Below are positions 997 to 18,208 of a DNA stretch of 64,000 nt, in pieces. The stretch lies in NCBI RefSeq assembly GCF_014638005.1, contig NZ_BMFG01000003.1:275721-339720 (forward strand), given 5' to 3'. The stretch is from Flavobacterium orientale (lineage in GTDB: Bacteria > Bacteroidota > Bacteroidia > Flavobacteriales > Flavobacteriaceae). Below the pieces are notes generated by a model. It searched no databases, was not told where the DNA came from, and worked only from the letters and a program-made list of their open reading frames with translations. Numbering within the stretch: position 1 is the stretch's first letter; every line of letters begins with the position of its first letter. The translations under genes were made by a program, and so were the position numbers.

Positions 997-1042
997 GCGA
1001 AGCCAAATTTTCAATTAGTGAGGTGTTGAATAATTAGAGAAG
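979..1042 (+). repeat. Imperfect tandem copy of the atpG 3' end
   Basis: GAGGCGTTGAACAATTAGGC at 979-998 spans the last codons and stop of atpG. It recurs as GAGGTGTTGAATAATTAGAG at 1020-1039, with similar spacing and a following GAAG. The copies differ mainly by C/T changes. This looks like a local duplication of the gene end. Confidence 0.6.
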
Positions 1043-1077
1043 ATTGAAAGGATAACAAAAAATAACATACATTTAAG

Positions 1078-1106
1078 AAAGTCACGTTTATAGCGTGACT
1101 TTTTTA
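1078..1106 (+). terminator. Rho-independent terminator after atpG
   Basis: The stem AAGTCACG / CGTGACTT (1079-1086 and 1094-1101) has a seven-nucleotide loop (TTTATAG) and is followed by a T tract. It lies 80 bp after atpG and just before the next promoter. Confidence 0.8.
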
Positions 1107-1111
1107 TTTTA

Positions 1112-1119
1112 TATCTTTG
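1112..1119 (+). promoter_or_regulatory. Candidate -7 element for the S9 peptidase
   Basis: TATCTTTG matches the Bacteroidota -7 consensus TAnnTTTG and lies 18 bp before the ATG at 1138. No TTG is visible at the -33 position. It overlaps a possible TTG start at 1117, which argues that translation starts at 1138. Confidence 0.45.
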
Positions 1120-1137
1120 AGAATCAAACTTTATTTA

Positions 1138-3483: not shown

Positions 3484-3918
3484 ATGGTAACGCTCAAAGA
3501 ACTTTCTTCCAAAGTTGAAATGCTTCAACAATTGCCCTTAATTCAGCAATTGTATCCCGAATTTACCGAACAAATTTACAGTGATTTGTTAGACGAAATG
3601 TTGCCCAACAACTACAAACAATTAGTTGCTTTTGAAAACGAAATACCCGTTGGTCTTTCCGGTTTTTGGGTAGGAACAAAATTATGGTGCGGAAAATATC
3701 TTGAATTAGACAACGTTATTGTTCATCCCGACTATCGTTCAAAAGGAGTTGGCAAATTATTGACAGAACATTTGAATCAAAAAGCGATTGATTTAGGTTG
3801 TAAAGTCGTTGCTTTAGATGCTTACACTAATAATTTTCCGGCTCATAAGTTTTATTTCAACCATGGATTTGTGCCGAAAGGGTTTCATTTTGTAAAGTTT
3901 TTGGAGGAGACTATATGA
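3484..3918 (+). CDS. GNAT family N-acetyltransferase
   Basis: This 144-residue protein belongs to the GCN5-related acetyltransferase fold and transfers an acetyl group from acetyl-CoA to an unknown amine. The acetyl-CoA pyrophosphate-binding motif A is clear: VIVHPDYRSKGVGKLLTEH carries the R-x-x-G-x-G signature. The C-terminal DAYTNNFPAHKFYFNHGF is the usual motif B with the tyrosine-bearing helix. The ATG at 3484 directly follows the stop of the S9 peptidase, so the two are probably cotranscribed, and its end overlaps the next gene by 4 bp. Substrate cannot be told from the sequence. Confidence 0.9.
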   Translation: MVTLKELSSKVEMLQQLPLIQQLYPEFTEQIYSDLLDEMLPNNYKQLVAFENEIPVGLSGFWVGTKLWCGKYLELDNVIVHPDYRSKGVGKLLTEHLNQKAIDLGCKVVALDAYTNNFPAHKFYFNHGFVPKGFHFVKFLEETI

Positions 3919-4934
3919 GAATTTTTTTAATATTATTATTTGTTTTGACAGCCACATTTACATGGAGTCAAAATCGCAATATCATTAACAATCAGGCTAT
4001 ACATTTTAGCCTAAAACACAAAAATGATACAATTGATTTTGTATTGATTGATACCAAAACAGACGTAAAAAAACCAATTTTTCTTTTTTGTCAGGGCTCA
4101 CTTCCATTGCCGTTGTTTGTACAAACAGCAAATGATGATATTTGGATGATTGGTGGCGGTATTACAAATTTTGATATTGAAATAATAAAAAAGAGTTATC
4201 ACTTAATCATCATTTCAATGCCGAAAACACCGGTTATTGTCAATGAAAAAAATTTGAATAAATCGTATTGTTATATTCCTAATCCAAATGAACCTGACGA
4301 GTTTGACCTAAATTATGTCAAATCTGATTATTTGGAAAATTATGAAAACAGAGCAAATAGTGTTTTGAAATTTTTAAGAAAACAAAAATGGGTTGACAAT
4401 TCTAAATTAGTAGTGGCTGGTCATTCACAAGGATCAAAAGTTGCGACAGTAATTGCGTTAAATAATAAAAAAGTAACGCATTTAGGTTTATTTAGTGCAA
4501 ACCCATTTGGCAGAATTGATCAAAGCATACGGTTTTATAGAAAACAAGCCGAAAGCAATCAAATTACTTGGCAAGAAGCCGATAAAGCAATTGAAAGGCA
4601 GTATGAACTATTCAGAAAGTCGCATGATGATAAAAAAGTCAAAGAAGATTGTAATTTGTTAGCCTGGAAATCATTTTCAAGACCATTGATTAATGATTGG
4701 TTAAAAATAGAAATTCCAACGTATTTGGCCTTTGGGACTTCGGACATTGCTTCAGATTTGTGTGATTTAGTTCCGTTGTTTTATATTCAGAACGCAAAAA
4801 CAAATTTAACCTTTAAACGTTATTTAAACGTAGAACATAATTTTTTTGAAGTTGACCAACAAGGAAAAGTCAATTATGAAAAAGAAAATTGGCCACTAGT
4901 AATGAATGATTTTATAGAATGGACTTTGAGGTAA
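3915..4934 (+). CDS. Exported alpha/beta-hydrolase fold protein
   Basis: The 339-residue protein has an N-terminal signal peptide (MRIFLILLFVLTATFTWSQ) and an alpha/beta-hydrolase core. An oxyanion-type strand is seen in PIFLFCQGSLPLPLF, the nucleophile elbow is VVAGHSQGSK, and a late histidine follows in YLNVEHNFFEVD. It is probably a periplasmic serine esterase or peptidase-like hydrolase, but the substrate is unknown. The ATG overlaps the stop of the acetyltransferase gene (ATGA), suggesting translational coupling in a short operon with the S9 peptidase. Confidence 0.8.
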   Translation: MRIFLILLFVLTATFTWSQNRNIINNQAIHFSLKHKNDTIDFVLIDTKTDVKKPIFLFCQGSLPLPLFVQTANDDIWMIGGGITNFDIEIIKKSYHLIIISMPKTPVIVNEKNLNKSYCYIPNPNEPDEFDLNYVKSDYLENYENRANSVLKFLRKQKWVDNSKLVVAGHSQGSKVATVIALNNKKVTHLGLFSANPFGRIDQSIRFYRKQAESNQITWQEADKAIERQYELFRKSHDDKKVKEDCNLLAWKSFSRPLINDWLKIEIPTYLAFGTSDIASDLCDLVPLFYIQNAKTNLTFKRYLNVEHNFFEVDQQGKVNYEKENWPLVMNDFIEWTLR

Positions 4935-4969
4935 ATAACATTTACTATAAAAAAAAGGATATTAAAATA

Positions 4970-5389
4970 ATGAGAAATTTTTCAATTATCGTTTCAATAA
5001 TTTTGATGGGATGTTCTTCAAAAGAAACCTTCCAAACCCAATTTCCCATTCCAATTTCTCATTATTTTTATCAAAGTAAAGACAATCAAACCCACTTTTT
5101 CATTGAATTTCAACAAGCTATTCCGGAAAACATCAAACTCGAAAAACTTTATTTCAAGAACCAAACCGCAGTAATTAAAATGATTTCCAGTCAAAAAATT
5201 GAAGCTGTTTTTATCAAAAACGATTTTATTCTTGATGCAAATCCTGAGAATGAATACGGCAACCAACTGCCAATTGCAGAAAAACCAAAATTTAATTTAA
5301 AACCCACAGAAGCCATTTTAGAATATTCACACAAAAATAAATTAATGCACCACAAATTCTTTGACGTAACCGAAAAGTCAAATAATTAG
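4970..5389 (+). CDS. Small uncharacterised lipoprotein
   Basis: An in-frame start exists at 4919, but the ATG at 4970 gives MRNFSIIVSIILMGCSSKE, a clear type II signal peptide with lipobox cysteine, so I use it. The mature protein of about 125 residues has alternating hydrophobic and charged stretches (FFIEFQQAIPENIKLEKLYF) suggesting a beta-sandwich. I do not recognise a named family, though it resembles the small lipoproteins of Flavobacteriia that begin with a beta-rich domain. It lies 35 bp after the hydrolase and is probably the last gene of that unit. Confidence 0.65.
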   Translation: MRNFSIIVSIILMGCSSKETFQTQFPIPISHYFYQSKDNQTHFFIEFQQAIPENIKLEKLYFKNQTAVIKMISSQKIEAVFIKNDFILDANPENEYGNQLPIAEKPKFNLKPTEAILEYSHKNKLMHHKFFDVTEKSNN

Positions 5390-5390
5390 T

Positions 5391-5398
5391 TAATTTTG
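5391..5398 (+). promoter_or_regulatory. Candidate -7 element for the flippase gene
   Basis: TAATTTTG matches TAnnTTTG, 28 bp upstream of the TTG start at 5427. No properly spaced -33 TTG was found. Confidence 0.35.
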
Positions 5399-5426
5399 CT
5401 TGATAACAATAAAAGACCACTAACCC

Positions 5427-6878
5427 TTGGGACTTTACAAATCACTTTTTAAACAAACCGCCATTTATGGGTTAGCTACCGTGCTTCCCAGAATGTTGAG
5501 TTTTTTATTGGTGCGACTTTATACTGATGTTCTTGATACAGCAGCTTATGGAGAAGTGTCTGTTATCTTTTCGTGGATTGTTTTTTTTAATGTTCTTTTG
5601 GCATACGGAATGGAGACTTCTTTTTTTAGATTTTATTCAAACCAGGACGATAAAAAAGCAGTGATAGGAACATCGATGATTTCTGTTTTTTGGTCTTCCA
5701 TTGTTTTTTTGGTAGTTTTTATGTTGTTCAGAAACACCATTGCAAAATTGGCAGGAATTGATGTAGAATTTATCACCTACACCATTTGGATATTAGTTTT
5801 GGATGCTTTAGTGATTATTCCTTTTTCAAAACTTAGAGCCTATCAACGCCCCGTTATTTATGCCATTATTAAAATTGGAAATGTGTTGGTAAACCTTGGC
5901 TTAAATCTTTTCTTTTTGCTTGTATTACCCAAAATGGCCGCCGCAAATCCCGATAGTTTTTTGGCAAGTATTTATATAGAAAACTTCCAAATAGGCTATA
6001 TTTTTATAGCCAATATCATAGCTAGTTTGTTAACTTTAGTTGTGTTATTGCCAAATTACTTTCACATTCAATGGCATTTTGACACCCAACTATGGAAGAA
6101 AATGCTTCGTTATGGTTTCCCGATTTTAATTGCAGGTTTGGCATTTGCCATCAACGAACATTTTGATAAAATTCTATTAAAATTTCTGAATGTCAGCAAA
6201 TCAGAGATTGGGGCTTATGCTGCTTGTTATAAAATCGGATTGTTTATGGTTTTGTTCAGAACTGCGTATACTTTAGGAATTGAGCCCTTCTTTTTTAGTT
6301 ATGCTAAAAATGAAAATGCACCCAAAGCTTATGCAGATGTTGCTAAATATTTCGTAATCTTTGGTTCCATTATTTCATTGTCAGTAATCGTTTTTGCAGA
6401 TATCATCAAAGTGTTATTAATCCCAAACAGCGATTATTGGGAAGCCATGAAAGTGGTGCCTTTGATTGTTTTAGCGAATTTCTTTTTAGGAATTTATACC
6501 AATCTCTCCGTCTGGTATAAGTTGACCGATAGAACCAAAATGGGAGCTTATATTTCTATTGTTGGAGCAATTTTAACCCTTGTTTTGAATTTTCTCCTGA
6601 TCAAACATTTAAGTTATTTAGGTTCTGCTATAGCAACAATTGTAGCCTATGGCTCAATGATGTTTATATCTTATGTATTAGGAAACAAATACTATCCTAT
6701 TCCTTATGATATGAAAAAAATAAGCGGTTATCTCGGACTTTCCATTCTGTTTTCTTTTGTCTATTTTTATGGTTTTAGAGAAAACTACTTTGTTGGAATT
6801 GGTTTGCTACTTGTTTTTATTTATTTCGTTTATCGAAATGAGAAAAGTGTGCTTTTAAGTATAATTAAAAAGAAATAA
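5427..6878 (+). CDS. Polysaccharide (oligosaccharide) flippase, MOP superfamily
   Basis: This is a 483-residue membrane protein of the Wzx/MATE-like MOP exporter superfamily that flips lipid-linked sugars to the outer leaflet. About 12-14 hydrophobic segments span the sequence, starting with KQTAIYGLATVLPRMLSFLL, a typical N-terminal helix of the family. The frame begins with TTG at 5427 (MGLYKSLFKQ); no ATG lies close enough to preserve the first helix, so TTG is the likely start. It could serve O-antigen, capsule or another envelope glycan. A sugar nucleotidyltransferase at 17198 may belong to the same envelope pathway although a 10-kb module lies between them. Confidence 0.88.
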   Translation: MGLYKSLFKQTAIYGLATVLPRMLSFLLVRLYTDVLDTAAYGEVSVIFSWIVFFNVLLAYGMETSFFRFYSNQDDKKAVIGTSMISVFWSSIVFLVVFMLFRNTIAKLAGIDVEFITYTIWILVLDALVIIPFSKLRAYQRPVIYAIIKIGNVLVNLGLNLFFLLVLPKMAAANPDSFLASIYIENFQIGYIFIANIIASLLTLVVLLPNYFHIQWHFDTQLWKKMLRYGFPILIAGLAFAINEHFDKILLKFLNVSKSEIGAYAACYKIGLFMVLFRTAYTLGIEPFFFSYAKNENAPKAYADVAKYFVIFGSIISLSVIVFADIIKVLLIPNSDYWEAMKVVPLIVLANFFLGIYTNLSVWYKLTDRTKMGAYISIVGAILTLVLNFLLIKHLSYLGSAIATIVAYGSMMFISYVLGNKYYPIPYDMKKISGYLGLSILFSFVYFYGFRENYFVGIGLLLVFIYFVYRNEKSVLLSIIKKK

Positions 6879-6930
6879 AACCTCGTTTATATAATCTGAT
6901 TTTATCAATCAAATACACATAAACAAGGTT
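6879..6930. terminator. Bidirectional hairpin between convergent genes
   Basis: AACCTCGTTTA (6879-6889) pairs with TAAACAAGGTT (6920-6930) with one mismatch, enclosing a 30-nt AT-rich loop. It lies between the ends of the flippase and the ATPase genes and probably terminates both. Confidence 0.55.
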
Positions 6931-6938
6931 ATAAAAAT

Positions 6939-9900
6939 TTATTTCTTCAACACATCTTTAATCCCATTCAAACCATCTGAAAATTCAGAAAGTAATGCAA
7001 TTACTTGTGCCATTCGATCATCGCCACCAACTCCTTTTAAAAGTTTGTTTTTCACAAAAGTGGTTTTAATTTCTTCCCAACGATTTTGCTCTTCTTCGGA
7101 CTGAATTTGCATCAATTCTTTTAGCTTTAGTAAATTAGCTTCCGCACCATTAGTCAGCGTTTGTGATTCGTTTTGATAATGATTTAATACAATGTTTTCT
7201 ACTTCTTTCTCGGTTAAAATAGGTTGAATTTTTGAAACCAATTTGTTCATATCACGATACGAACCTTGCAATTTAAAGTTCGGTTCATTGCGATAATCAT
7301 CAGACATGGCAGCCGATTTTATATAAAGTGCATTGGCTTTTAAAATCGTTGTTCTCACTTGAATAATCTTTGCTAAAACCTGTTTAAAATCTTCTATTTC
7401 TTGCGAAGAAAAGTTGCCTTCCAAGTCATAATTGGTATCATTTTGCAGAATAGCATCATATAATTTATACAAGTTTTGATAAGCAGGTTGTGTTAAACGA
7501 ACCATATATTCGTTAGACATTAACGCATTTTCAATTAAACTCAAGTCGAATAAATCACCTCTTGAACCGGAAATATCGCCCAAGTTATACGTATCTGCTC
7601 GGTTGGCCAACATATCCGGAATTTGAAATTTGTCGCCACTTTCGGTATAAGGATTTCCGGCCATGACTAAACAAAAACGCTTGGAGCGTAAATCATACGT
7701 TTTGGCTTCTCCGTTATAAATTCCTTCAATTTTTCGCTGACCATCGGCTAATGAAATGAATTTTTGTAAAAATTCGGGATTACAATGTTGAATATCATCT
7801 AAATACAACATCACATTATCACCCATTTCAAAAGCAAGATTTAGTTTTTCCAGTTCTTGTCTTGCTCCGGCATTTTTGGCTTCACTCGGATCGGTTGAGG
7901 TGATTTCATTTCCAATGGAAGGACCATTAATTTTCATAAAAACCAATCCCATTCTATCGGCCAAATATTCCATTAAAGTGGTTTTTCCATAACCTGGTGG
8001 CGAAACTAATAAAAGCATTCCCATTCTGTCGGTTCGTTTATTATCGCCAATTGCTCCAATTTGTTTGGCTAAATTGGCTCCGATTAATGGAAAATAAACA
8101 TCGTTTATTAATTTATTTCTAACAAAAGAAGTTAAAACCTGACTGGTAAATGTGTGTAGTTTTAATTCTTTCTTTTTCGCATCGACCCACTGTTTTTTGA
8201 GTTGTTGTAAGGCTAAAAATGCGGGTTTTAATTTGGAATGAAAATAATCCAAACGTGCAGAAAATTCATAATAATCCAAGGTATAAGTCAGATTACTTTC
8301 AATGGATTTTAAACCTTGTATTTCAACCGAAGAATTGATGTTTACAATTTGCTTTTTATGATAATTTTGCGTCAATACAAAAGCGGCAATTTCTTCAATA
8401 AAAGCTTGAGAAATCGTTATGTTTTCTTCTATCAAAAACGTTTTTAAAGCATTTTCAACAATATCATAACAAGCAGAAGGATAGCTGTATAAATCTTTTA
8501 CTTGATTAATGAAAACCACATCTTTCCCTTTTTCTTTTAAACTTTTAAAGAAACGCTCGTAGGCATCGGCAGCAATTTTTGAAATGGAGAAAGCTTTACG
8601 GTTTTCTTTTTTCAGATAAACTGCCGTTCGATAAGAAGAAACCAAATCGAAGCCATCAAAAGTGATATTGAATTCATCAATTTTTTGCGATAACCGTTTG
8701 TTTAAATATTTGAATTGTTCCGAACTACTGAATGTTTCTTTCAATAAACTAACGGCACTAAACTGCTTTTCATAAAATGCTTTGTCTTCTTCATTCAGAA
8801 AAAACCAAAATAGTTGTGCCAATGCTCTTTCGGAAGGCGTATATTTTAGTACACCCAACTCATTATTAATTTGTTGTAAATGTTGTAAAATGACTAATGC
8901 ATCCACATCATGCACACCTTTTACTAAACCTTCACCAAAATGTGCCGCCATAAATTCTTGCACTCGTTGCAAATTCACCGATTCGGGAACAATGTTTTCT
9001 TGTTGCAAGAATATTTCCCAAGCCATGTATTCAAAGCGTTTTACCTTGTGGTTTTCGGAAATGAATTCTTGGTTCCAAACTTCTTTATATTGTTCAATTT
9101 CTTCAAATTCAACCGGTTGATAAAAATTAGTTCCGGTTAAATGATAGAAATAGTTTTGGTCTTTTAAAACCAATGTTAAGTCAAGTTTTTGCTTATTTAC
9201 TGCAAATTTATAGTCGCCAAAAGCAATGACTGCATCGCCATCTTCATAAATTTCATTCTTGTCTTTTAGTTTTCTAACGGCTTCTTGTTGGGCTGTTTTT
9301 AGTAACGTATTAACTTCTTCCGATTTATTGCTATCGTTTAACTCTTTTAATTGATTGGCAATATCCCGTACTTTTTCAATCATTAAATCCGAAGCAAAAT
9401 ATCCGTTAATTTCGGTTTCGGTTGCAAAGGAAGCGGCTTTGTTTTTTACCCCTTTCAAAATTCGTTCAGCCGATTGATACAATTGCGTCGTACGCTTGTT
9501 TCTGGCTTCGGTTAACTGAACGGCTTTACTTTGAAAATGACCATAAACTTCTTCTCGTTTTTCGCTGATTTGTTGAATAAAATCATCAAAATCAACAAAC
9601 TTCGCTTCCATTTCTTCTAATTGAATGGATAATTTATTTAGAAAATCATCGCATTTTTCAGCGGTATTTGCTAATTCTAAAAAGTTGATTACGGTTTGAT
9701 CAAAAAGTGTGATTTGGGCTTTGAAATCGGCAGAAAGTTCTTTCCCGGAAATTTCTCTTTTTTTGTTGTTTAGTTCAATTCGTTGTTGATTGATTTGAGC
9801 AAAAATCAAAGAGATGTTTTCAATTATTTGTGTGGATTGCGAAGCATCTTCAATTTTTAAATTATTGACGATGTCAACCAATAATTCCAATTGAAGTGCT

Positions 9901-11747
9901 AATTCATCTATATCTTTTTCAAGCGTTCTAGCATCAATTGTTTTTTTAAGATCAGCAATTTGTTGATTAATTAATGCAACTTTTTCTTGATATGGAATTA
10001 AAGCATTGTCTTGCAGTAGAAAAGAAACACACGCATTGGAAAGTTCATCTGCTCTTTCATGCAATTGTTTTTCTAGCGATTCGAGCAACGGAATTTCTAC
10101 ATATTTTAATTCTTTTGCACCAATTAATTCGCCACGTAAGGCACGAATTTGTGACAAAGCAGCAATGTATTGATCTAATGATTGATAGGAAACAACACTA
10201 GTGTCTGATAAAATCTTTTCACATTTTTCTTCTAATTCGGCAACCGTTTGAGCAGTTTTATTTTTAATTTCTTGGGCTTTCTCAAATTCATTAATCGCTG
10301 CATGAGCAATTTTTCTGATTTCGAGTAAAGGTTCGTTGAGTTGATGTACTTCTTTTTCGCCAAGGAAATAATAGCTGTCTAAAATGATCGTAGCTTGTTT
10401 GACAATATCATCATACAAACCCGAATACGAATCTTTTTTAGACAATAAAATGTTTAATTCCTGCGATTCTGCCATCACTCGAACCAAATCTTTATTCCCA
10501 ATTTTGTATAATAGATTATTTTTTAACGAATCGTCAATTGTAATTTCTTTGGTAAAAGGAGTTTGCCAAATTTGAATTAAATGGTGTTTGGTTTCTTCAT
10601 TCGATTTAAAATAAGCCAATTTTCCGTTATCAAACAATGTAAAACCATTACAATTAATTGGCGTTTCAATGGTTTGTTTAATGATGTTGTACGGAATTAG
10701 CAAATAATCATACGATTGCTCGTCGTAGAAAACAAACATGAAATTTTCGCCATTATTTCCAACGATTCTTCTTTTAAAATAAACCGGTTTATCTTCCGAA
10801 GCAATCACACGAATTTCTCCGGTTTGCAAAGCGTAGCCATTTGGATAAATAACCCCTTGATTTTCGGGCAAAAGAATAATGGAATATTTTAGCGAATCAA
10901 CTCGTGCAACTTTCTTCTCTTTGTGGTTATAGATGAAAAAACGTTCTGCTTCTTGATACGGTTTTATCTTAAAAATAACCAAATTGTTATAATCAAAATA
11001 ATGAATTTCAGCATCATCTAACGTTTGATCTTTGTGAGCAACATCTTCGCTATAAATTCCTTTTCCACTGTTGGTATTGTCTTCAATTTTAATGGTAATA
11101 TCGCCACCGATTGCTTCCACAAAAACTTTATCGGCTAATGAAACGTGCGGATGACTTCCTTTGCGTTGCATTTCGCGAGTAACTTTTGTCCAAACAAACT
11201 CTTGTTGAGTGGGATATTTTACCTCGGCTGCACTTCTGGCATCCACAAAAGTTAGTGTATTGTCTTTAATTAACCATTTGAACGCTTTAATATCCGAAGC
11301 ACTATTGGATAATTGAAACACAAAATACAGGTAGTTTTGTGTAATGTGAAAGCGAACAAAAAGGGTGTTTCGGTAGTATTTATAGAGGTTTTTGAATTCT
11401 TCAATAAACGTCTCATCTTCAATAAACTGAATAGGTTGCGGTTCAAAACGATTATCGATTAACAAATAAGCCGAAAAAACATCGTTTAAATTTATTTCAG
11501 TTCGCAAACCTAAATGCGTATTGTGTCCAACTAAACACAGATTTCCTAACGAGAAAATGTCTTTTATCTGGCAATTTTGATCGGTTGAGATACGTTCATT
11601 CGCAATTAGCGAAAAATCAACACCTCCAAATACCTTTTTTCGATCTTCGTTTAAAGCTTGAATGCGTTGAATTAAATTTTCTTTTTGTTCATTCAATCGG
11701 TTTTGAATGATTTCGTATGTACCCGTATTTAATTGTTCGTTGCTCAT
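6939..11747 (-). CDS. Giant coiled-coil AAA+ ATPase ('DNA repair ATPase'-type)
   Basis: The protein has about 1602 residues from the ATG at 11747 (MSNEQLNTGTYEIIQ); an ATG at 11792 would add 15 basic/hydrophobic residues and cannot be excluded. The N-terminal ~430 residues are beta-rich with regularly spaced short strands, possibly a propeller. Residues ~430-830 are strongly heptad-like coiled coil, and a helical region follows. The AAA+ domain is near the C-terminus: Walker A PPGYGKTT with Lys1255 and Walker B YLDDIQ with Asp1317-Asp1318. Relatives are often annotated 'DNA repair ATPase', but I see no DNA-binding or nuclease motif. Its neighbours (flotillin, membrane OB-fold protein, PspA) point to a membrane-associated role, perhaps remodelling a coiled-coil scaffold. 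That role is inferred, not established. Confidence 0.8.
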   Translation of the reverse strand: MSNEQLNTGTYEIIQNRLNEQKENLIQRIQALNEDRKKVFGGVDFSLIANERISTDQNCQIKDIFSLGNLCLVGHNTHLGLRTEINLNDVFSAYLLIDNRFEPQPIQFIEDETFIEEFKNLYKYYRNTLFVRFHITQNYLYFVFQLSNSASDIKAFKWLIKDNTLTFVDARSAAEVKYPTQQEFVWTKVTREMQRKGSHPHVSLADKVFVEAIGGDITIKIEDNTNSGKGIYSEDVAHKDQTLDDAEIHYFDYNNLVIFKIKPYQEAERFFIYNHKEKKVARVDSLKYSIILLPENQGVIYPNGYALQTGEIRVIASEDKPVYFKRRIVGNNGENFMFVFYDEQSYDYLLIPYNIIKQTIETPINCNGFTLFDNGKLAYFKSNEETKHHLIQIWQTPFTKEITIDDSLKNNLLYKIGNKDLVRVMAESQELNILLSKKDSYSGLYDDIVKQATIILDSYYFLGEKEVHQLNEPLLEIRKIAHAAINEFEKAQEIKNKTAQTVAELEEKCEKILSDTSVVSYQSLDQYIAALSQIRALRGELIGAKELKYVEIPLLESLEKQLHERADELSNACVSFLLQDNALIPYQEKVALINQQIADLKKTIDARTLEKDIDELALQLELLVDIVNNLKIEDASQSTQIIENISLIFAQINQQRIELNNKKREISGKELSADFKAQITLFDQTVINFLELANTAEKCDDFLNKLSIQLEEMEAKFVDFDDFIQQISEKREEVYGHFQSKAVQLTEARNKRTTQLYQSAERILKGVKNKAASFATETEINGYFASDLMIEKVRDIANQLKELNDSNKSEEVNTLLKTAQQEAVRKLKDKNEIYEDGDAVIAFGDYKFAVNKQKLDLTLVLKDQNYFYHLTGTNFYQPVEFEEIEQYKEVWNQEFISENHKVKRFEYMAWEIFLQQENIVPESVNLQRVQEFMAAHFGEGLVKGVHDVDALVILQHLQQINNELGVLKYTPSERALAQLFWFFLNEEDKAFYEKQFSAVSLLKETFSSSEQFKYLNKRLSQKIDEFNITFDGFDLVSSYRTAVYLKKENRKAFSISKIAADAYERFFKSLKEKGKDVVFINQVKDLYSYPSACYDIVENALKTFLIEENITISQAFIEEIAAFVLTQNYHKKQIVNINSSVEIQGLKSIESNLTYTLDYYEFSARLDYFHSKLKPAFLALQQLKKQWVDAKKKELKLHTFTSQVLTSFVRNKLINDVYFPLIGANLAKQIGAIGDNKRTDRMGMLLLVSPPGYGKTTLMEYLADRMGLVFMKINGPSIGNEITSTDPSEAKNAGARQELEKLNLAFEMGDNVMLYLDDIQHCNPEFLQKFISLADGQRKIEGIYNGEAKTYDLRSKRFCLVMAGNPYTESGDKFQIPDMLANRADTYNLGDISGSRGDLFDLSLIENALMSNEYMVRLTQPAYQNLYKLYDAILQNDTNYDLEGNFSSQEIEDFKQVLAKIIQVRTTILKANALYIKSAAMSDDYRNEPNFKLQGSYRDMNKLVSKIQPILTEKEVENIVLNHYQNESQTLTNGAEANLLKLKELMQIQSEEEQNRWEEIKTTFVKNKLLKGVGGDDRMAQVIALLSEFSDGLNGIKDVLKK

Positions 11748-11830
11748 TAATTTTTGGTAAAATTTTAAAAGTCTTTTTTTTAAAAACTTCAATTAGCTTT
11801 GAAATCAAAGGAAAGCAAAAGAAAAACCAG

Positions 11831-11863
11831 AATAATTCTCTACTAAAAGAGTAGAGAATTATT
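11831..11863 (-). promoter_or_regulatory. Perfect 14-bp hairpin between flotillin and ATPase genes
   Basis: AATAATTCTCTACT (11831-11844) and its exact complement (11850-11863) flank a five-base loop. In the direction of transcription it lies 26 nt after the flotillin stop and 84 nt before the ATPase ATG. The next bases read CTGG then a short T-run, so it may act as a weak terminator or an RNA-processing hairpin that lowers expression of the ATPase relative to the upstream genes. Confidence 0.6.
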
Positions 11864-11888
11864 TAGTTTAGAATGAATCGATTAAATT

Positions 11889-13901
11889 TTACTTTAACGG
11901 TTTGTTGTCGATGCCTAAATGTTTAGCCATGTTCATAGCTCGGGCAAGAATTCCTTGCTCCTGATCATTGGCAACTCCTTTCAGTTGAAAAATCAAGGAA
12001 GCTACGCTTAGGTTTTTGATGTCTTCGGAGGAAATTTTATATTTTTCAACCATATTCATGATTTTGCCAATTAGGTTTTCATCGCCGTCATTACTTAGTA
12101 AAGCTTCTTTTACTAACTGTGCATTTTCGCTGTGTTGAATGAATTTGTCAATTCCTTTTCCGGCAGAAACTTGTCTTACCACATTGTCAAAGAAAGTGTT
12201 ATCTCCGCCCACAATGTCAATGTTAGCCGATTTGAATGCTTCCGCTAAAACCTGAGCTTGTGCTTGAGCAATATCTTTTTGAATGGCAATTTCAGCTAAT
12301 TCTACTTCTTTTTCTTTGGCTAAGGTTAATCTAAACTCTTCGTGATCTTTTCCGGCATCGTTTAGTTTTTTCATTGCTTCAGCTTTTTCGGTAATTCCGG
12401 CTGCTTCTGCAAAAGCTTTTTCTTTGATTACTTCGGCTTGTGCCAAACCTTCTTGTTTGTTGGCAGCCGCTTTTTTCTCAATGATGTTTGCTTCAATGAA
12501 ACCTTGTTTTTCCATAGCTTCTGCTTTGGCATGCATTACTTGAGCTTCCGATAAACCAACAGTTGCTTCTTCTTTTGCTTGAGCATCGGCAATGATTTTA
12601 CGAGCATCGGCTTCTTTTTCGGCAGCATCGCGTTTGGCTTGTGCTTCGATCACATATTTTTGAGCATCTTTTTCAGCCGATTGTTTTCTGGCTTCTGCAT
12701 CACGAGTCATGGCAATCAAGTTTTCTTCTGCTTCACGAGAAGCAACAATCAATTGTACTTGTTTTTCTCTTTCGGCACCTTTGAATGCTTCCACATCATA
12801 AATATTTTGTTGTTCTTCTACCACCGTTTTTTCTTTTACTAAACGTTCGCGAATAACATCTTGAATATTTTTCTTTTCAACCTCTACTGCTTTGTCTTTT
12901 TCAATATCGGCTAAAGCTACTACTCGTTCTCTTTCAGTAGCTTCCAGCATTCGGTCTTTTTGAACTCTTTCTGTTTCAACTAATTCGGCTCTTTCTTTAT
13001 TTTTTGCCGCAATAACAACTTGTCGTTGTTTGTTTTCTTCGGCCACTTGAAGGGTTTCTTCTGTAGCAATTCTAACTGATTCAGATTTTAATCTTTCTTC
13101 TTCGGCAACTTTCAAAATCTCAGCATTTTCTCTGGATTGAATGTTGGCAATTTCTCTGCGTTGTTGTTCTTCTTTTTCAGCCAATTGTTTTTCTAATTCA
13201 AGAATTGTTTCTCTTGCTTCAACATCTTGCTTTTTGATGGTTTTTTCTTCATCTCTTCTAACCAAATTGGCTTTAATGTTTTGATTGGCAGTTAATTCAG
13301 TAATTTTTTTAATCCCTTCTGCATCCAAAATATTGTCTTTATTTAGGTGTTGCAAAGAGGTTTGTTCTAAATAGTCTATGGCACAATCATCCAATACATA
13401 ACCGTTTAAGTCGGTTCCGATAATATTTAAAATTTCTTGACGGAATTCGCTTCGAGCTTCATACAATTCAATAAAATCGAATTTTTTACCCACTGTTTTT
13501 AACGCCTCAGAAAATTTTGCTTCAAACAATTCTCTTAACGTAGCGATATCAGAAGCTCTTTGGCAACCGATGGTTTGTCCCACATTCACAATGTCATCAA
13601 CCGATTTGTTTACACGAACAAAGAAGGCCACTTGAATGTCGGCACGCATATTGTCTTTACAAATTAATCCGTCTTTTCCTTCTCTGGATATTTCTAATTT
13701 TTTTACTGAAATATCCATATATTCCAAACGATGAATAACAGGAATTACAACTCCGGCATTAAAAAACACTTTAGCTCCACCATAACCGGTTCTTAGAAGA
13801 ACAACTCCTTGAACGGTTTTTTTGTACATGGATAAAATCCAAAAAATTAAGCCAAAAAAAGCAATTACAATAACAGCAATTGTAACATAAAATGTAGTCA
13901 T
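11889..13901 (-). CDS. Flotillin-family (SPFH/band 7) membrane scaffold, YqiK-like
   Basis: This 670-residue protein has one N-terminal membrane helix (FYVTIAVIVIAFFGLIFWIL), an SPFH/band-7 domain over about residues 30-200, and a long Ala/Glu-rich coiled coil to about residue 540 with repeated EAQAKRDAAEKEADARK-type segments. The C-terminal part ends with helices like those of YqiK/FloT. Flotillins form rings that organise membrane microdomains. In E. coli the YqiJ (OB-fold)-YqiK (flotillin) pair has the same arrangement as the neighbouring gene at 13941. PspA follows upstream in the same direction, so the products probably act together on the inner membrane. The gap of 39 bp to the OB-fold gene fits one operon. 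Confidence 0.9.
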   Translation of the reverse strand: MTTFYVTIAVIVIAFFGLIFWILSMYKKTVQGVVLLRTGYGGAKVFFNAGVVIPVIHRLEYMDISVKKLEISREGKDGLICKDNMRADIQVAFFVRVNKSVDDIVNVGQTIGCQRASDIATLRELFEAKFSEALKTVGKKFDFIELYEARSEFRQEILNIIGTDLNGYVLDDCAIDYLEQTSLQHLNKDNILDAEGIKKITELTANQNIKANLVRRDEEKTIKKQDVEARETILELEKQLAEKEEQQRREIANIQSRENAEILKVAEEERLKSESVRIATEETLQVAEENKQRQVVIAAKNKERAELVETERVQKDRMLEATERERVVALADIEKDKAVEVEKKNIQDVIRERLVKEKTVVEEQQNIYDVEAFKGAEREKQVQLIVASREAEENLIAMTRDAEARKQSAEKDAQKYVIEAQAKRDAAEKEADARKIIADAQAKEEATVGLSEAQVMHAKAEAMEKQGFIEANIIEKKAAANKQEGLAQAEVIKEKAFAEAAGITEKAEAMKKLNDAGKDHEEFRLTLAKEKEVELAEIAIQKDIAQAQAQVLAEAFKSANIDIVGGDNTFFDNVVRQVSAGKGIDKFIQHSENAQLVKEALLSNDGDENLIGKIMNMVEKYKISSEDIKNLSVASLIFQLKGVANDQEQGILARAMNMAKHLGIDNKPLK

Positions 13902-13940
13902 AAGGTTAGATTTAGAATATTAATGTGTTTTTAATGGTGT

Positions 13941-14591
13941 TTATAGTTCGTATGATTTTTCAATTAAATAGAATTTTTTATCAGGATTTTCATCCACAAT
14001 GCAAGCCTTTTCGCCTTCTTTCAAAAGCGAACCGTCTTTGCTTTTTACTAAAAGTTTTATCGGGTCTTTGTTAATTACTAATTCAAGCATTCCTAATTTA
14101 TCTTTTTCAATGGTTGATTTTAGCACGCCAACTCTTCCTAAATAATCATACGCGATTTCTCCTTTGTGATTAATTTCTTTAAAAATTGGTTTCAAAGGCA
14201 TACTAATATATTTTGTAATAAATAAACTAGCAATAAAAGCAGGAACAATGGTGATAAAATACATCCAATAAGGCAAGGGAATAAAGTAACTAATGTTCAC
14301 ATTAATCAGCCAAGTAAACAACAAAACGAGCGTTATAAAAAAGGTAATAGGAATGATATCCAAATTTAAAAACTTTAAAAATTGAATAAAAGAAGATGGA
14401 TCTTGAGGTACTTCAACCGTTGCGTCGGGAGCATCAAAATCAGCATCCATGTCAGCATCAAAATCAATATCATAATCGCCTACACCGGTAATCATTGTAA
14501 ATATCCAATACACCACACTTAAAATTAAAAGAATGGAAAGAATGGTATTTGCCGGATTAAATGAAACTTCTAGTAACTCGTTTAAATTCAT
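13941..14591 (-). CDS. Membrane OB-fold (NfeD/YqiJ-like) protein
   Basis: The 216-residue protein has hydrophobic helices at about residues 14-36, 78-100 and 103-126, then a C-terminal soluble domain of about 80 residues (HKGEIAYDYLGRVGVLKSTI and following beta strands) that fits the OB fold of NfeD/YqiJ partners of flotillins. Between helices 1 and 2 lies a strikingly acidic segment, DYDIDFDADMDADFDAPD. Such proteins are encoded next to SPFH proteins and are thought to help them assemble. The start lies 2 bp after the PspA stop and the gene is followed by the flotillin, so they are almost certainly cotranscribed. Confidence 0.82.
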   Translation of the reverse strand: MNLNELLEVSFNPANTILSILLILSVVYWIFTMITGVGDYDIDFDADMDADFDAPDATVEVPQDPSSFIQFLKFLNLDIIPITFFITLVLLFTWLINVNISYFIPLPYWMYFITIVPAFIASLFITKYISMPLKPIFKEINHKGEIAYDYLGRVGVLKSTIEKDKLGMLELVINKDPIKLLVKSKDGSLLKEGEKACIVDENPDKKFYLIEKSYEL

Positions 14592-14593
14592 AC

Positions 14594-15295
14594 TTAATTA
14601 GCGTTGAATTGTTCTTTAAGTTTTTGCAATTCCATTTCAGCATGAGCATCGGATGTGTCTACTGCTGCGTTAATTTCTTGGTCAATACTTTTTGAAGCAT
14701 CTGCAATATGGCTATAAGCATCTGCCAAGGCTTCTTGTTGCAACACTTTGTCTTTCATTTTTTCTAACATAGAAATCGTGCTATCAGAATCGATTTGAGT
14801 CATTTTTTTGTTAATGTCTTGCGTAGCTTTACTTACTTGTACGCGAGCTCGTAAGGTTTTTAATTCACCTTCCCATTTAGAAATTGTAGATTTTAAAGCG
14901 TTGATGTTATTTTGCATTTTATCCACATCAGTTTCTAATTTCTGACGTTCTTTATCCGCAATTTGAGCATCCATCATTGATTGTTCTTTCTTTTTTAAAG
15001 CTTCTTTGGCTAATCGGTCTGCTTCTTCAATTGGCATTTCTTCTTTAACACCTTTTTGAACCAAAAGCATGGCCTTGTTTTGATAATCATTCGATTGATT
15101 AATCAACGATTCTTGTTCGTTTTTTCTACGAATTGACAACGCTTTCACTTGAGCAAGTGCTTGAATACTTTGATCTAATTGATCTTTCATTTCTCTGATT
15201 CCTTGTTCGGTCATTTTTATAGGGTCTTCCAAACTGTTTACGGCAGAATGTGCCTCAGCTTTACCTATTCTAAAAAGTCTTTTAATAATGTTCAT
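14594..15295 (-). CDS. pspA: PspA/IM30 family membrane-stress protein
   Basis: The 233-residue length and nearly continuous coiled coil match PspA/IM30 (ESCRT-III-like) proteins, which bind stressed inner membranes and form rods or rings. The N-terminal amphipathic helix MNIIKRLFRIGKAEAHSAVN is followed by LEDPIKMTEQGIREMKDQLD, the conserved start of helix 1. The long heptad region (KAMLLVQKGVKEEMPIEEAD) and the C-terminal helices around MLEKMKDKVLQQEALADAY fit the family. It is first in a tight run with the OB-fold and flotillin genes, a recurring PspA context; no pspB, pspC or pspF homolog is visible. Transcription probably starts in the 137-bp gap upstream, which lacks a clear -7 match. 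Confidence 0.9.
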   Translation of the reverse strand: MNIIKRLFRIGKAEAHSAVNSLEDPIKMTEQGIREMKDQLDQSIQALAQVKALSIRRKNEQESLINQSNDYQNKAMLLVQKGVKEEMPIEEADRLAKEALKKKEQSMMDAQIADKERQKLETDVDKMQNNINALKSTISKWEGELKTLRARVQVSKATQDINKKMTQIDSDSTISMLEKMKDKVLQQEALADAYSHIADASKSIDQEINAAVDTSDAHAEMELQKLKEQFNAN

Positions 15296-15432
15296 GATAT
15301 TGAGTGTATTATAAGGTTAATATTAATGTTTTTTTTTGAATTATTTTAAAATTTGAAATAATATTTTGGTTAAGAAACAAACGATGTGAAAGATAAAATA
15401 TACCATTTTGACAATCAGTTTTTTAGTTAAAA
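15296..15432. other. 137-bp AT-rich gap upstream of pspA
   Basis: No open frame, RNA gene or clear TAnnTTTG on the minus strand was seen here. A promoter for the pspA unit, or read-through from the upstream small gene, are both possible. Confidence 0.4.
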
Positions 15433-15831
15433 TTATTTGCTAAACGAAATCATTTCCGTTGAATATTCGCTAATTAGTAAACTCAACGAATTAATTGTAG
15501 CAATCAATTCATTTTGATTTAAGTTTTCGGTTTGAAGCGTATCTCTAAAAATCACTTTTTCTCCACTTTCATCTAATACAAATGCACCATGAACAATGTC
15601 TCTGTTTTTAATCAACAATTGTTTAAAAATATCGTGCTGATTATTTTTGCAACGAAATAAAAACTGTTCAATAATTAAAATTTGAGGAGCAATTACAATC
15701 ATCATGTTTTTTATTCCTTCATTTTCTTTTTCAATGATAAAAGTTTGATGCTCTTCATTTTCCAGTTGAATATAATACTCCAGTTCTAGTAACCAATTTT
15801 TTACTCTTGAAAACAATTTTAAATCTTCCAT
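15433..15831 (-). CDS. Small CesT/YbjN-like (type III chaperone-fold) protein
   Basis: The 132-residue protein has an alternating alpha/beta pattern with a central segment NMMIVIAPQILIIEQFLFRC, then LLIKNRDIVHGAFVLDESGE and VIFRDTLQTENLNQNELIAT. This is the layout of CesT/YbjN-type small acidic folds, in which a beta strand with H-G-A/R-F is followed by a strand carrying D-E-x-G. No signal peptide or membrane helix is present, so it is cytoplasmic. It lies upstream of pspA in the same direction with a 137-bp gap. Proteins with this fold recur next to PspA genes, so a chaperone or adaptor role in the stress module is plausible. I base the fold call on pattern only. Confidence 0.6.
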   Translation of the reverse strand: MEDLKLFSRVKNWLLELEYYIQLENEEHQTFIIEKENEGIKNMMIVIAPQILIIEQFLFRCKNNQHDIFKQLLIKNRDIVHGAFVLDESGEKVIFRDTLQTENLNQNELIATINSLSLLISEYSTEMISFSK

Positions 15832-15859
15832 AAATTGATAGGTTTGAATGTTGATAAAA

Positions 15860-15867
15860 CAAATTTA
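15860..15867 (-). promoter_or_regulatory. Candidate -7 element for the CesT-like gene
   Basis: On the minus strand the sequence reads TAAATTTG, matching TAnnTTTG, 28 bp before the ATG at 15831. It lies in the divergent gap shared with the XRE regulator. Confidence 0.4.
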
Positions 15868-15883
15868 TACAAAATTTTTAATA

Positions 15884-15933
15884 TTGCAAATATTTTTAGC
15901 ATAAAAATCAATTTTAGTTGTTATATTTGCAAA
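15884..15933. promoter_or_regulatory. Two TTGCAAA boxes in the divergent XRE promoter region
   Basis: TTGCAAA occurs at 15884-15890 and 15927-15933, 43 bp apart (about four helical turns). The second overlaps the -7 element of the XRE gene. They are candidate operator sites for the adjacent regulator, inferred only from position and spacing. Confidence 0.3.
15922..15929 (+). promoter_or_regulatory. Candidate -7 element for the XRE regulator
   Basis: TATATTTG matches TAnnTTTG perfectly and lies 17 bp before the ATG at 15947. No spaced TTG at -33 was found. Confidence 0.5.
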
Positions 15934-15946
15934 AAAGAATAGCGGA

Positions 15947-16555
15947 ATGACATATTTTGGCACCAATTTAAAGAAGATAAGACAAATAAAAGGACTAAGC
16001 CAACAAGCTTTTGCTGAACTTATTGACTTAAATAGAGGAGTCATTAGTTCCTATGAAGAGGGAAGAGCAGAACCAAAGATTGAAACGCTTTTGCGAATTG
16101 CAACTTATTTTGGCATACCAACTGATGATATCATCTCAAAACCGCTGACGGTTAATCAATTAGCCAATTTTACATTAATTGAAGATAGTGTAACTTCATT
16201 ATCAGAAGAAAAAGTCCTTGCTATTCAGGAAATAAACCTAAAAGGAGAAAAGAAAGATATTGAGTTGCAAAAAATATTAGCACATTTTGATTTTGTTTTT
16301 TATGTAGATGAAAATTTAGCCAATAAAAGTAGCTATGAAAAAGATTCAATTTTATTCTTAAAAGAAGTAAAAAAAGAAACTAAAAATCACAGTCAGTATC
16401 TAACTTTAGAGAAAGGAATGGCTTTAATTTCTGAAAAATTCATTCCGGCTATTACAAATTATGCTATAGTTGGAGTCTTGGGAAGCTTACCCAATGATCA
16501 AAACACCATTCTACAACGCCTCAATTTACTTGAAAAAAAGGTTTTTGGGAAGTAA
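15947..16555 (+). CDS. XRE-family helix-turn-helix transcriptional regulator
   Basis: The 202-residue protein begins with a clear XRE/HTH_3 domain (residues ~5-65): LKKIRQIKGLSQQAFAELID, then the recognition-helix region NRGVISSYEEGRAEPKIETL. The remaining ~135 residues are helical with no recognised ligand-binding or peptidase domain; the C-terminal RLNLLEKKVFGK looks like a short coiled coil for dimerisation. It is divergent from the PspA/flotillin module with a 115-bp gap, the usual place for an autoregulator that also controls its neighbour. Nothing in the sequence proves that it regulates the stress genes. Confidence 0.88.
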   Translation: MTYFGTNLKKIRQIKGLSQQAFAELIDLNRGVISSYEEGRAEPKIETLLRIATYFGIPTDDIISKPLTVNQLANFTLIEDSVTSLSEEKVLAIQEINLKGEKKDIELQKILAHFDFVFYVDENLANKSSYEKDSILFLKEVKKETKNHSQYLTLEKGMALISEKFIPAITNYAIVGVLGSLPNDQNTILQRLNLLEKKVFGK

Positions 16556-16619
16556 TTTTTTTTGAATGTTTTATTTGGGTTATAAAAATCCAAAACAACC
16601 TATATTTCTTTATTTTTTT

Positions 16620-16627
16620 TAACTTTG
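16620..16627 (+). promoter_or_regulatory. Candidate -7 element for dut
   Basis: TAACTTTG matches TAnnTTTG, 58 bp upstream of the dut ATG. The surrounding 130-bp gap holds no other gene. Confidence 0.45.
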
Positions 16628-16685
16628 GTGATTAAATTTAAGCATAATCATCAAAAGATATTTTATTTTCAATAAAGAAGAAAAA

Positions 16686-17120
16686 ATGAACATCAAAATC
16701 ATCAATAAATCACAACATCCCTTACCCAACTACGAAACAATTGCTTCTGCCGGAATGGATTTAAGAGCCAATTTATCAGAACCAATTACCTTAAAATCAT
16801 TAGAAAGAACCATCGTTAAAACAGGTTTGTTTATTGAACTGCCAATTGGTTACGAAGCTCAAGTTCGTCCACGTAGCGGATTAGCTGCCAAAAAAGGAAT
16901 CACCGTTTTAAATTCTCCCGGTACAGTTGATGCTGATTATCGTGGTGAAATCGGGGTAATTTTAGTAAATTTATCCCATGATGAATTTGTCATCGAAAAC
17001 GGTGAGCGAATCGCTCAATTAATCATTGCGAAACACGAAAGAGCTGAATGGCTGGAAGTGGAAGAATTATCAGAAACATCCAGAGGTGAAGGTGGTTTTG
17101 GCAGCACAGGCGTGAAATAG
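16686..17120 (+). CDS. dut: dUTP diphosphatase (dUTPase)
   Basis: It hydrolyses dUTP to dUMP and pyrophosphate, keeping uracil out of DNA and supplying dUMP for thymidylate synthesis. At 144 residues it has the trimeric dUTPase length and all five motifs in order: AGMDLRA (1), [11 protein letters not shown] (2), [14 protein letters not shown] (3), GERIAQLII (4) and the C-terminal [11 protein letters not shown] (5) that closes over the active site. Motif 3 contains the catalytic aspartate of DADYRG. The envelope genes that follow from 17198 are separated by a 77-bp gap with a small repeat. Confidence 0.98.
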
Positions 17121-17142
17121 TTTAATTATAAATTCAAAAATA

Positions 17143-17190
17143 ACCTTTGTGAACTTTGCGAAATATCTTTGCAAGCTTTGCGGTTAAAAT
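17143..17190 (+). repeat. CTTTG-rich intergenic element with embedded -7 box
   Basis: Four CTTTG-type units (CTTTGTGAA, CTTTGCGAA, ATCTTTGCAAG, CTTTGCGG) follow each other between dut and the nucleotidyltransferase and end in TTAAAAT. Within the element TATCTTTG (17164-17171) matches the -7 consensus and would start transcription about 20 bp before the ATG at 17198. From memory, similar CTTTGCG elements are scattered in Flavobacterium intergenic regions. Confidence 0.55.
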
Positions 17191-17197
17191 AAAAAAT

Positions 17198-18208
17198 ATG
17201 AAAATAATAGTTCCAATGGCCGGTCGCGGTTCAAGATTAAGACCTCATACCTTAACCGTTCCAAAACCATTAATTCCAATAGCCGGAAAACCAATCGTTC
17301 ATCGATTAGTGGAAGATATAGCCGGAGTTTTAAATCAACCGATTGACGAAGTAGCTTTTATCATTCATGAAAGTTTTGGCAAACAAGTGGAAGAAGAATT
17401 AATCGCGATTGCTCAAAAATTAGGAGCAAAAGGAACCATTTATTATCAAAATGTAGCTCTCGGAACAGGTCACGCCATTATGTGTGCCAAAGATTCATTG
17501 AGCGGACCTGCTGTAATTGCTTATGCCGATACATTGATTCGAGCCGATTTTGATTTGGATACTTCAGCTGATAGCGTAATTTGGGTAAAACAAGTCGATC
17601 AGCCCGAAGCTTTTGGCGTTGTAAATTTGAATTCTGATGGAGAAATTATTGAATTAGTAGAAAAACCAAAAGAGTTTGTTTCTGATTTAGCGGTAATTGG
17701 AATATACTATTTCAAAGACGTAGCCGTTCTTAAAAACGAGTTGCAATCGGTTCTTGATAACAATATTATTCATGGTGGTGAATACCAAATTAATGACGGA
17801 ATCAAACAAATGATGGCAAAGGGAATGAAGTTTGTTCCCGGAAAAGTAGATGAATGGATGGATTGCGGAAACAAAAATGTGACAGTGGAAACCAATTCAA
17901 GAATGTTGCATTTCCTTCATCAGGATGGAGAAAAATTAATTTCAAAAGCGATTGTTTCAGAGAACTCAACTATCATCGAACCTTGTTTCATTGGCGAAAA
18001 TGTTGAGTTGAAAAATGCAACAGTGGGACCAAATGTTTCATTAGGATATGGTTGTAAAGTTGAAAATGCTTCAATAAAAAATAGTTTGGTTCAAAATTTG
18101 ACAGTAATAAGAAATGCAAATTTAGACAATGCAATGATCGGAAGTAACGTGACATTTGACGGAAATTTTACTTCAATAAGCATTGGTGATTATTCAGTTT
18201 TAGAATAA
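17198..18208 (+). CDS. Sugar-phosphate nucleotidyltransferase with hexapeptide C-terminus
   Basis: This is a 336-residue NTP transferase: it condenses a sugar-1-phosphate with an NTP to give an NDP-sugar. The N-terminal GGxGTRL-type loop appears as MAGRGSRLRPHTLTVPKPLI, and IAGKPI and GTGHAIMCAKDSL follow. A typical catalytic segment is seen in VVNLNSDGEIIELVEKPKEF. The last ~90 residues are isoleucine-patch repeats (VSENSTIIEPCFIGENVELK) of a left-handed beta-helix. The upstream in-frame start at 17156 begins inside the CTTTG repeat, so the ATG at 17198 is used. The product sugar cannot be named. It probably feeds cell-envelope glycans. Confidence 0.88.
   Translation: MKIIVPMAGRGSRLRPHTLTVPKPLIPIAGKPIVHRLVEDIAGVLNQPIDEVAFIIHESFGKQVEEELIAIAQKLGAKGTIYYQNVALGTGHAIMCAKDSLSGPAVIAYADTLIRADFDLDTSADSVIWVKQVDQPEAFGVVNLNSDGEIIELVEKPKEFVSDLAVIGIYYFKDVAVLKNELQSVLDNNIIHGGEYQINDGIKQMMAKGMKFVPGKVDEWMDCGNKNVTVETNSRMLHFLHQDGEKLISKAIVSENSTIIEPCFIGENVELKNATVGPNVSLGYGCKVENASIKNSLVQNLTVIRNANLDNAMIGSNVTFDGNFTSISIGDYSVLE

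What the first reader, a model, noticed from the sequence alone, without database searches (positions are those of the whole stretch)
6939..15831. Membrane-stress module: giant AAA+ ATPase, flotillin, OB-fold protein, PspA and CesT-like protein
Seen: five same-strand genes encode PspA/IM30, a membrane OB-fold protein, an SPFH flotillin, a 1602-residue AAA+ ATPase and a small CesT/YbjN-like protein. Known: PspA and flotillins both act on inner-membrane integrity, and YqiJ-YqiK-like pairs occur in other bacteria. Inferred: the ATPase may be the energy-using motor that remodels or disassembles PspA or flotillin polymers, much as Vps4 does for ESCRT-III. The AAA+ partner together with both scaffold types is a possible undescribed membrane-repair machine.
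Basis: partly seen in the sequence, partly recalled or inferred. Interest (0 to 1): 0.75.

Follow-up and report, generated by a model that had tools for sequence, protein, structure and literature searches.

The report
Flotillin motor with add-on PspA cassette
A published kind of bacterial membrane-stress gene cluster proves to be two separable gene units, and its giant ATPase gene lies beside a flotillin gene even in genomes where no PspA gene was found, so the ATPase likely works on flotillin scaffolds rather than as a motor that dismantles PspA.

The parts
6939..11747 (-). Giant AAA+ ATPase (DUF3686 family), 1602 aa: N-terminal beta-propeller, long coiled coils, C-terminal AAA+ domain
   Evidence: Pfam DUF3686 557 bits; start by alignment A1 and ATG codon; AlphaFold2 models of both halves
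10560..11612 (-). Predicted WD40-like beta-propeller, residues 46-396
9246..10514 (-). Predicted helical and coiled-coil region, residues 412-834
   Evidence: model m6a3c7fc04a34
7104..8114 (-). AAA+ domain, residues 1212-1548; Walker A K1255, Walker B D1317/D1318, sensor 1 N1365, arginine finger R1383, sensor 2 R1498 (role names recalled)
11831..11863 (-). 14-bp hairpin in the flotillin-ATPase gap
   Evidence: z -3.8 for the 141-nt gap; position conserved
11889..13901 (-). SPFH/flotillin, YqiK-like, 670 aa, one N-terminal hydrophobic segment followed by YKK
   Evidence: Band_7 49 bits on residues 25-215; profile matches YqiK 211 bits; hydropathy
13941..14591 (-). YqiJ-like membrane protein, 216 aa
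   Evidence: profile matches YqiJ at 22.8 bits, weak; hydrophobic segments; syntenic in 76 of 78 loci
14594..15295 (-). PspA/IM30, 233 aa
   Evidence: PF04012 125.8 bits; only PspA match in this genome
15433..15831 (-). CesT/Tir-like protein, 132 aa
   Evidence: PF22550 CesT_Tir_1 176.4 bits
15947..16555 (+). Divergent CI-type HTH regulator (REG), 202 aa; this copy has no recognisable S24 domain
   Evidence: HTH_3 54.6 bits; REG at the divergent position in 58 of 59 PspA-bearing loci

Best explanation
This is a published kind of envelope-stress locus built from two separable gene units, a CI-type repressor with CesT and PspA, and a YqiJ-like protein with a flotillin and a giant AAA+ ATPase, in which the ATPase is predicted to be a MoxR-like motor that likely acts on the flotillin scaffold rather than on PspA. 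Shown by calls: gene content and order, near-obligate flotillin-ATPase adjacency, separability of the two units, genomes with the ATPase operon and no PspA match, intact ATPase motifs, the position-conserved hairpin. Predicted: propeller, coiled coil and AAA+ fold; flotillin anchored by one N-terminal segment with its SPFH part in the cytosol (positive-inside rule, recalled). Inferred mechanism: YqiJ-like protein and flotillin form a scaffold on the inner membrane; the soluble ATPase docks on it through propeller and coiled coil and uses ATP to load, remodel or release complexes held there; the hairpin would keep ATPase scarcer than flotillin; where the second unit is present, a repressor released by stress would turn on PspA, kept soluble by CesT, as a membrane-patching arm at the same sites.
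Confidence: 0.58

Rival explanations
1. Vps4-like motor: the ATPase depolymerises PspA (an ESCRT-III relative) as Vps4 does ESCRT-III, flotillin only marking the site.
For: CesT-PspA joined to the operon in 56 of 78 loci, PspA in 59, and in all 10 ATPase genomes of the even sample; strong co-occurrence in relatives; Ravi et al. propose ATP-dependent remodelling for PspA-linked AAA+ ATPases.
Against: 14 of 19 genomes with a PspA-less operon have no PspA above cut-off; PspA in 2 of 11 plasmid-collection loci; no MIT domain reported by Pfam; predicted AAA+ best aligned to MoxR/dynein types.
Confidence: 0.15
2. MoxR-type client chaperone: the ATPase assembles a third-party membrane complex (respiratory or other), flotillin being only the assembly platform.
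For: Best VIA-align fold matches are NorQ and CbbQ; RavA is proposed to assist assembly of respiratory complexes and sits in a cage.
Against: No VWA match among the operon proteins and no client gene that I recognised as conserved in the operon; ORFs inserted in the flotillin-ATPase gap cluster only within genera.
Confidence: 0.17
3. Two transcription units: the gap hairpin is an ordinary terminator and the ATPase is expressed independently of the flotillin operon. This concerns expression and could hold together with any of the mechanisms above.
For: Gap is long (median 156 nt against 12-39); some hairpins in other phyla (L105, L106) are followed by T runs (sequences).
Against: T tails of strong gap stems (mean 3.0 of 8) are poorer than after the ATPase (4.4, p 0.002) or in other same-strand gaps (4.5, p 0.0005); 47 of 50 ORFs found in long gaps lie on the operon strand.
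Confidence: 0.2
4. Anti-phage or other conflict system: an accessory, mobile membrane-guard operon under a CI-type repressor.
For: Patchy (9 of 100 relatives, 10 of 392 Bacteroidota); four Flavobacterium tree positions; CI-type repressor; copies on large plasmids.
Against: PADLOC has no match for the five operon proteins, only generic HTH matches for REG; no relative found in phage records or viral contigs; the window neighbours scanned are housekeeping-type genes.
Confidence: 0.05

Closest known systems
CesT/Tir-PspA + band-7/flotillin + AAA+ + YqiJ operons of Ravi et al. 2024 (PMC11237479)
   Same: Same five gene types, the AAA+ protein fused to coiled coil and beta-propeller, shorter flotillin-YqiJ-(ATPase) operons noted (section 19 read in full)
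   Different: The passages read name no regulator for this group and no intergenic hairpin, and suggest PspA encoded elsewhere for the short operons; here 14 of 19 such genomes have none above cut-off. Supplements not readable
E. coli YqiJ-YqiK
   Same: YqiJ-like membrane protein followed by SPFH flotillin
   Different: No giant ATPase among the genes downstream; YqiK's match ends at profile position 445 of 687
P. aeruginosa bac cluster (PMC10948618, PMC13086221; passages read)
   Same: YjfI/CesT-type protein, PspA, short NfeD and SPFH protein PaFlo3 in one cluster
   Different: The word ATPase occurs in neither main text; its CesT-like protein is of the DUF2170 kind
HflK/C-FtsH
   Same: SPFH assembly working with an AAA ATPase (listing and start of abstract)
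   Different: FtsH is a membrane protease; this ATPase has no TM-like segment and no protease domain was found
MoxR ATPases (NorQ, CbbQ, RavA)
   Same: Best VIA-align matches of the predicted AAA+ domain (NorQ, CbbQ)
   Different: No VWA partner in the operon; propeller and coiled coils added; flotillin beside it instead
Vps4 / ESCRT-III
   Same: AAA+ ATPase beside an ESCRT-III-superfamily protein (PspA)
   Different: No MIT domain found, predicted hairpin before sensor 1, PspA dispensable

Membership tests
Ravi et al. CesT/Tir-PspA-flotillin-AAA+-YqiJ operon group | CesT/Tir-PspA gene pair | tested here: met
   176 and 126 bits, adjacent
Ravi et al. [quoted passage not shown]
   hydrophobic segment 1-28, Band_7, YqiK homology over about 430 residues; the Pfam Flot domain, found in YqiK, is not reported for the window protein
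Ravi et al. [quoted passage not shown]
   predicted models, propeller matches, AAA/AAA_5
Ravi et al. CesT/Tir-PspA-flotillin-AAA+-YqiJ operon group | 3TM protein of the YqiJ/YuaF type | tested here: met
   YqiJ match 22.8 bits, weak, with hydrophobic segments and synteny; number of TMs not determined
Vps4 / classical AAA ATPases | N-terminal MIT domain | tested here: not met
   no MIT match in Pfam at E 0.5; N terminus is a helix and propeller in the model
Vps4 / classical AAA ATPases | No hairpin before sensor 1 (recalled clade feature) | tested here: not met
   strands 507-512 and 515-520 precede sensor-1 strand 526-531 in the predicted model
Vps4 / classical AAA ATPases | Fold match to Vps4-type domains | tested here: inconclusive
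   none among the 50 rows shown; absence from the list does not exclude it
MoxR / clade 7 AAA+ | AAA+ fold closest to MoxR-type structures | tested here: inconclusive
MoxR / clade 7 AAA+ | Pre-sensor-2 insertion repositioning the lid (PMC6987120) | tested here: inconclusive
   115 residues and a long helix 616-648 between arginine finger and sensor 2 in the model; lid placement not measured
MoxR / clade 7 AAA+ | VWA-domain partner gene (common, not universal) | tested here: not met
   no VWA match among the operon's proteins
SPFH / YqiK-like flotillin | SPFH domain and YqiK homology | tested here: met
PspA/IM30 | PF04012 above gathering score | tested here: met
   125.8 against 33.9 bits
CI/LexA-type repressor (REG) | Cro/CI HTH plus S24 domain | tested here: inconclusive
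   window copy has the HTH only; 3 of the 4 other copies scanned have both

The most novel reading that the evidence does not exclude
A giant MoxR-like propeller ATPase is the dedicated energy source of a bacterial flotillin scaffold, an ATP-driven flotillin machine found in at least four phyla, its dose set by a position-conserved mRNA hairpin, onto which a repressor-CesT-PspA cassette plugs in as a removable membrane-repair arm.
Probability: 0.35. Interest if true: 0.75.

Novelty: new member of a known kind. Interest (0 to 1): 0.45.

Why it matters
What bacterial flotillins do, and whether they use energy, is open. A tightly linked motor gene, present in genomes where no PspA was found, makes the question testable in one operon: purify flotillin, YqiJ-like protein and ATPase and ask for ATP-dependent change. 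It also narrows the 'bacterial ESCRT' idea: in this family PspA looks like an optional partner, so Vps4-like depolymerisation of PspA is unlikely to be the ATPase's general job. The CI-type repressor gives a handle on what signal turns PspA on in Bacteroidota, and the hairpin predicts a measurable flotillin:ATPase ratio.

Tried and rejected
DNA repair: the ATPase is labelled 'DNA repair ATPase' in plasmid records and DUF3686 is titled 'ATPase involved in DNA repair' in Pfam; I did not test this and saw no lead for it in the fold matches or the window's neighbours. Phage or viral origin: no relative in viral contigs or phage records at those sensitivities. Anti-phage defence: PADLOC no match for the five proteins. 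Known RNA: no Rfam match at gathering scores over 5000-18000. Promoter scan: 48 sites against 39.3 expected, not used. Operator search in the REG-CesT gap: top dyads in 10 of 59 gaps against at most 7 in shuffles, clades not separated; inconclusive, dropped. Conserved flotillin tail as ATPase-binding motif: a C-terminal stretch looks shared by Bacteroidota, Streptomyces and Vibrio but not by Deinococcus or Pseudomonas; dropped. Sequence matches to solved structures: for the ATPase only short AAA stretches, none for flotillin or the YqiJ-like protein. Vps4-type structures were not among the 50 rows shown; that excludes nothing.

Papers: DUF3686 occurs in none of the library. Opened: PMC11237479 (section 19 in full, other passages), PMC9239133, PMC10948618, PMC13086221, PMC6987120 and PMC11354728 (passages only). 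Among those opened only PMC11237479 describes this operon; PMC9239133 reports band-7 genes beside pspA in Bacteroidota and other phyla. No experiment on the ATPase was seen in the passages.

Counts: of 88 loci (80 named + 8 relatives), L038 was dropped (no ATPase ORF of 1300 aa or more) and 9 more for less than 6.5 kb upstream; L015 and L029 have identical ATPases and are the same genome counted twice (contig lengths). A first census that walked only 8 ORFs upstream undercounted PspA and was replaced. A first reading of the plasmid-collection loci missed genes in G+C-rich records; one search repeated it on six frames. Distance correlations and Fisher tests carry no correction for kinship.

Full report
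OBSERVATION. The five minus-strand genes exist at the stated coordinates with the stated families. The ATPase ORF reads 1617 aa from a TTG; relatives begin near the ATG 15 codons in, giving 1602 aa. The flotillin is missed by Pfam at full length but matches Band_7 over residues 25-215 and E. coli YqiK by profile (211 bits); the OB-fold protein matches YqiJ weakly (22.8 bits).

ALREADY IN PRINT. Ravi et al. [quoted passage not shown] Their section 18 (passage) compares PspA-linked AAA+ ATPases with Vps4. 'Undescribed' is therefore wrong. DUF3686 itself appears in no paper of the library.

LINKAGE CENSUS. From 80 named genome loci (the best 80 of 456 confirmed) and 8 relatives, 78 have an intact ATPase and at least 6.5 kb upstream. 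In these, flotillin is adjacent in 77 (76 by profile, L087 by tblastn; L089 has none), the YqiJ-like gene in 76, PspA in 59, CesT in 56, REG in 63; where present, the genes keep one order. All but one of the 80 named loci are Bacteroidota. The evenly drawn phylum sample gives 10 of 392 genomes with the ATPase; all 10 have all six genes (window). Outside, 12 plasmid-collection records match; of the 11 loci I read, from Bacteroidota, Pseudomonadota, Actinomycetota and Deinococcota, 11 have flotillin just upstream, 10 the YqiJ-like gene and 2 PspA. Several of these 'plasmids' are of chromosome size.

PspA IS DISPENSABLE. Among 100 relatives 9 have the ATPase and 11 a PspA above cut-off; 8 have both (p 8e-9; relatedness not corrected). 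But of 18 named genomes whose operon lacks PspA, 13 have none above cut-off anywhere (12 no match at all), and G020 has no match: 14 of 19. Four of the 14 are MAGs (L071, L075, L077, L086); Chryseobacterium, Myroides, Pontibacter and Dysgonomonas isolates are among the rest. The published suggestion that short operons use a PspA from elsewhere fits 5 of the 19, not these 14.

TWO MODULES AND A REGULATOR. All 3 relatives with PspA above cut-off but no ATPase carry REG-CesT-PspA with no flotillin, YqiJ or ATPase gene in the 16-19 kb read. REG is present in 58 of 59 PspA-bearing loci and 5 of 19 without PspA; its profile hits 66 ORFs in the 88 loci, 65 of them at this divergent position. Of 5 copies scanned, 3 have HTH plus a Peptidase S24 domain, the CI/LexA layout; the window copy and one other have only the HTH. 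Pairwise distances over 56 full loci group ATPase-flotillin (0.91) and PspA-CesT (0.82), with PspA-flotillin lower (0.66); REG tracks the ATPase (0.91) more than PspA (0.74), which does not fit a simple split.

HAIRPIN. The flotillin-ATPase gap is long (median 156 nt against 12-39 elsewhere in the operon) and folds strongly: z<-2 in 48 of 55 gaps of 40-400 nt, 27 of 33 after thinning to under 80% ATPase identity, against 3 of 17 (YqiJ-flotillin), 2 of 12 (PspA-YqiJ) and 18 of 48 (150 nt after the ATPase); 8 of 10 plasmid-collection gaps, of which one is again Bacteroidota (7 of 9 without it), including Streptomyces, Vibrio and Proteus but neither Deinococcus. Stem sequences differ between most clades. 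Stems are stronger than in other same-strand gaps of the loci (p 6e-7), and strong stems lack the T tails of stems elsewhere (p 0.002, 0.0005). G.T pairs outnumber A.C mismatches 35 to 12 in stems scored neutrally (53 of 66 gaps; p 0.001, related species not merged), pointing to the sense RNA. In the puf operon, RNA-stabilising elements help set protein ratios (PMC11354728, passage); I infer the same here, more flotillin than ATPase. A partial terminator would give the same step and is not excluded.

SPREAD. Flavobacterium ATPases fall in four places of the tree: the window group with Riemerella/Chryseobacterium, a group with Aquimarina (support 87), one inside Myroides, one with Sphingobacterium/Empedobacter (quick method). 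With the patchy presence this suggests horizontal transfer of the cassette.

VERDICT. A real member of a published operon class. The mechanism is inferred throughout.

Noticed in passing
L105 (pQBR103) 980-14184: YjfI-PspA-rhomboid-DUF2491-DUF350-DUF1190-glutathionylspermidine synthase runs straight into YqiJ-flotillin-ATPase: two published PspA operon types joined on one plasmid.
   Followed up: partly
flotillin-ATPase gap of L013, L017, L048, L050-L052, L055, L058, L061, L063, L064, L068-L070, L073, L075-L077, L079, L083, L088, L091, L093, L102: The gap looks like an insertion slot: 50 ORFs of 60 aa or more in 24 loci, 47 on the operon strand; the 10 scanned include IS200-like transposase, M54-like protease, GH43 and DUF3800.
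   Followed up: partly
L038 10001-14656: Chryseobacterium hagamense copy has no ATPase ORF of 1300 aa or more although the rest of the operon is there; decay or assembly error not told apart.
   Followed up: no
L035, L036, L044, L056, L098 gap hairpins: Stems of the form AAACCT...AGGTTT recur in distant genera and may be a family of repeated hairpins.
   Followed up: no
window 15947-16555 compared with L117, L118, L109: The window's REG lacks the S24 domain found in three of the four other copies scanned; regulation may differ between clades.
   Followed up: partly
L110 (Streptomyces globosus plasmid): Only plasmid-collection locus where the YqiJ-like gene is not found by profile; a methyltransferase gene precedes flotillin.
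   Followed up: no
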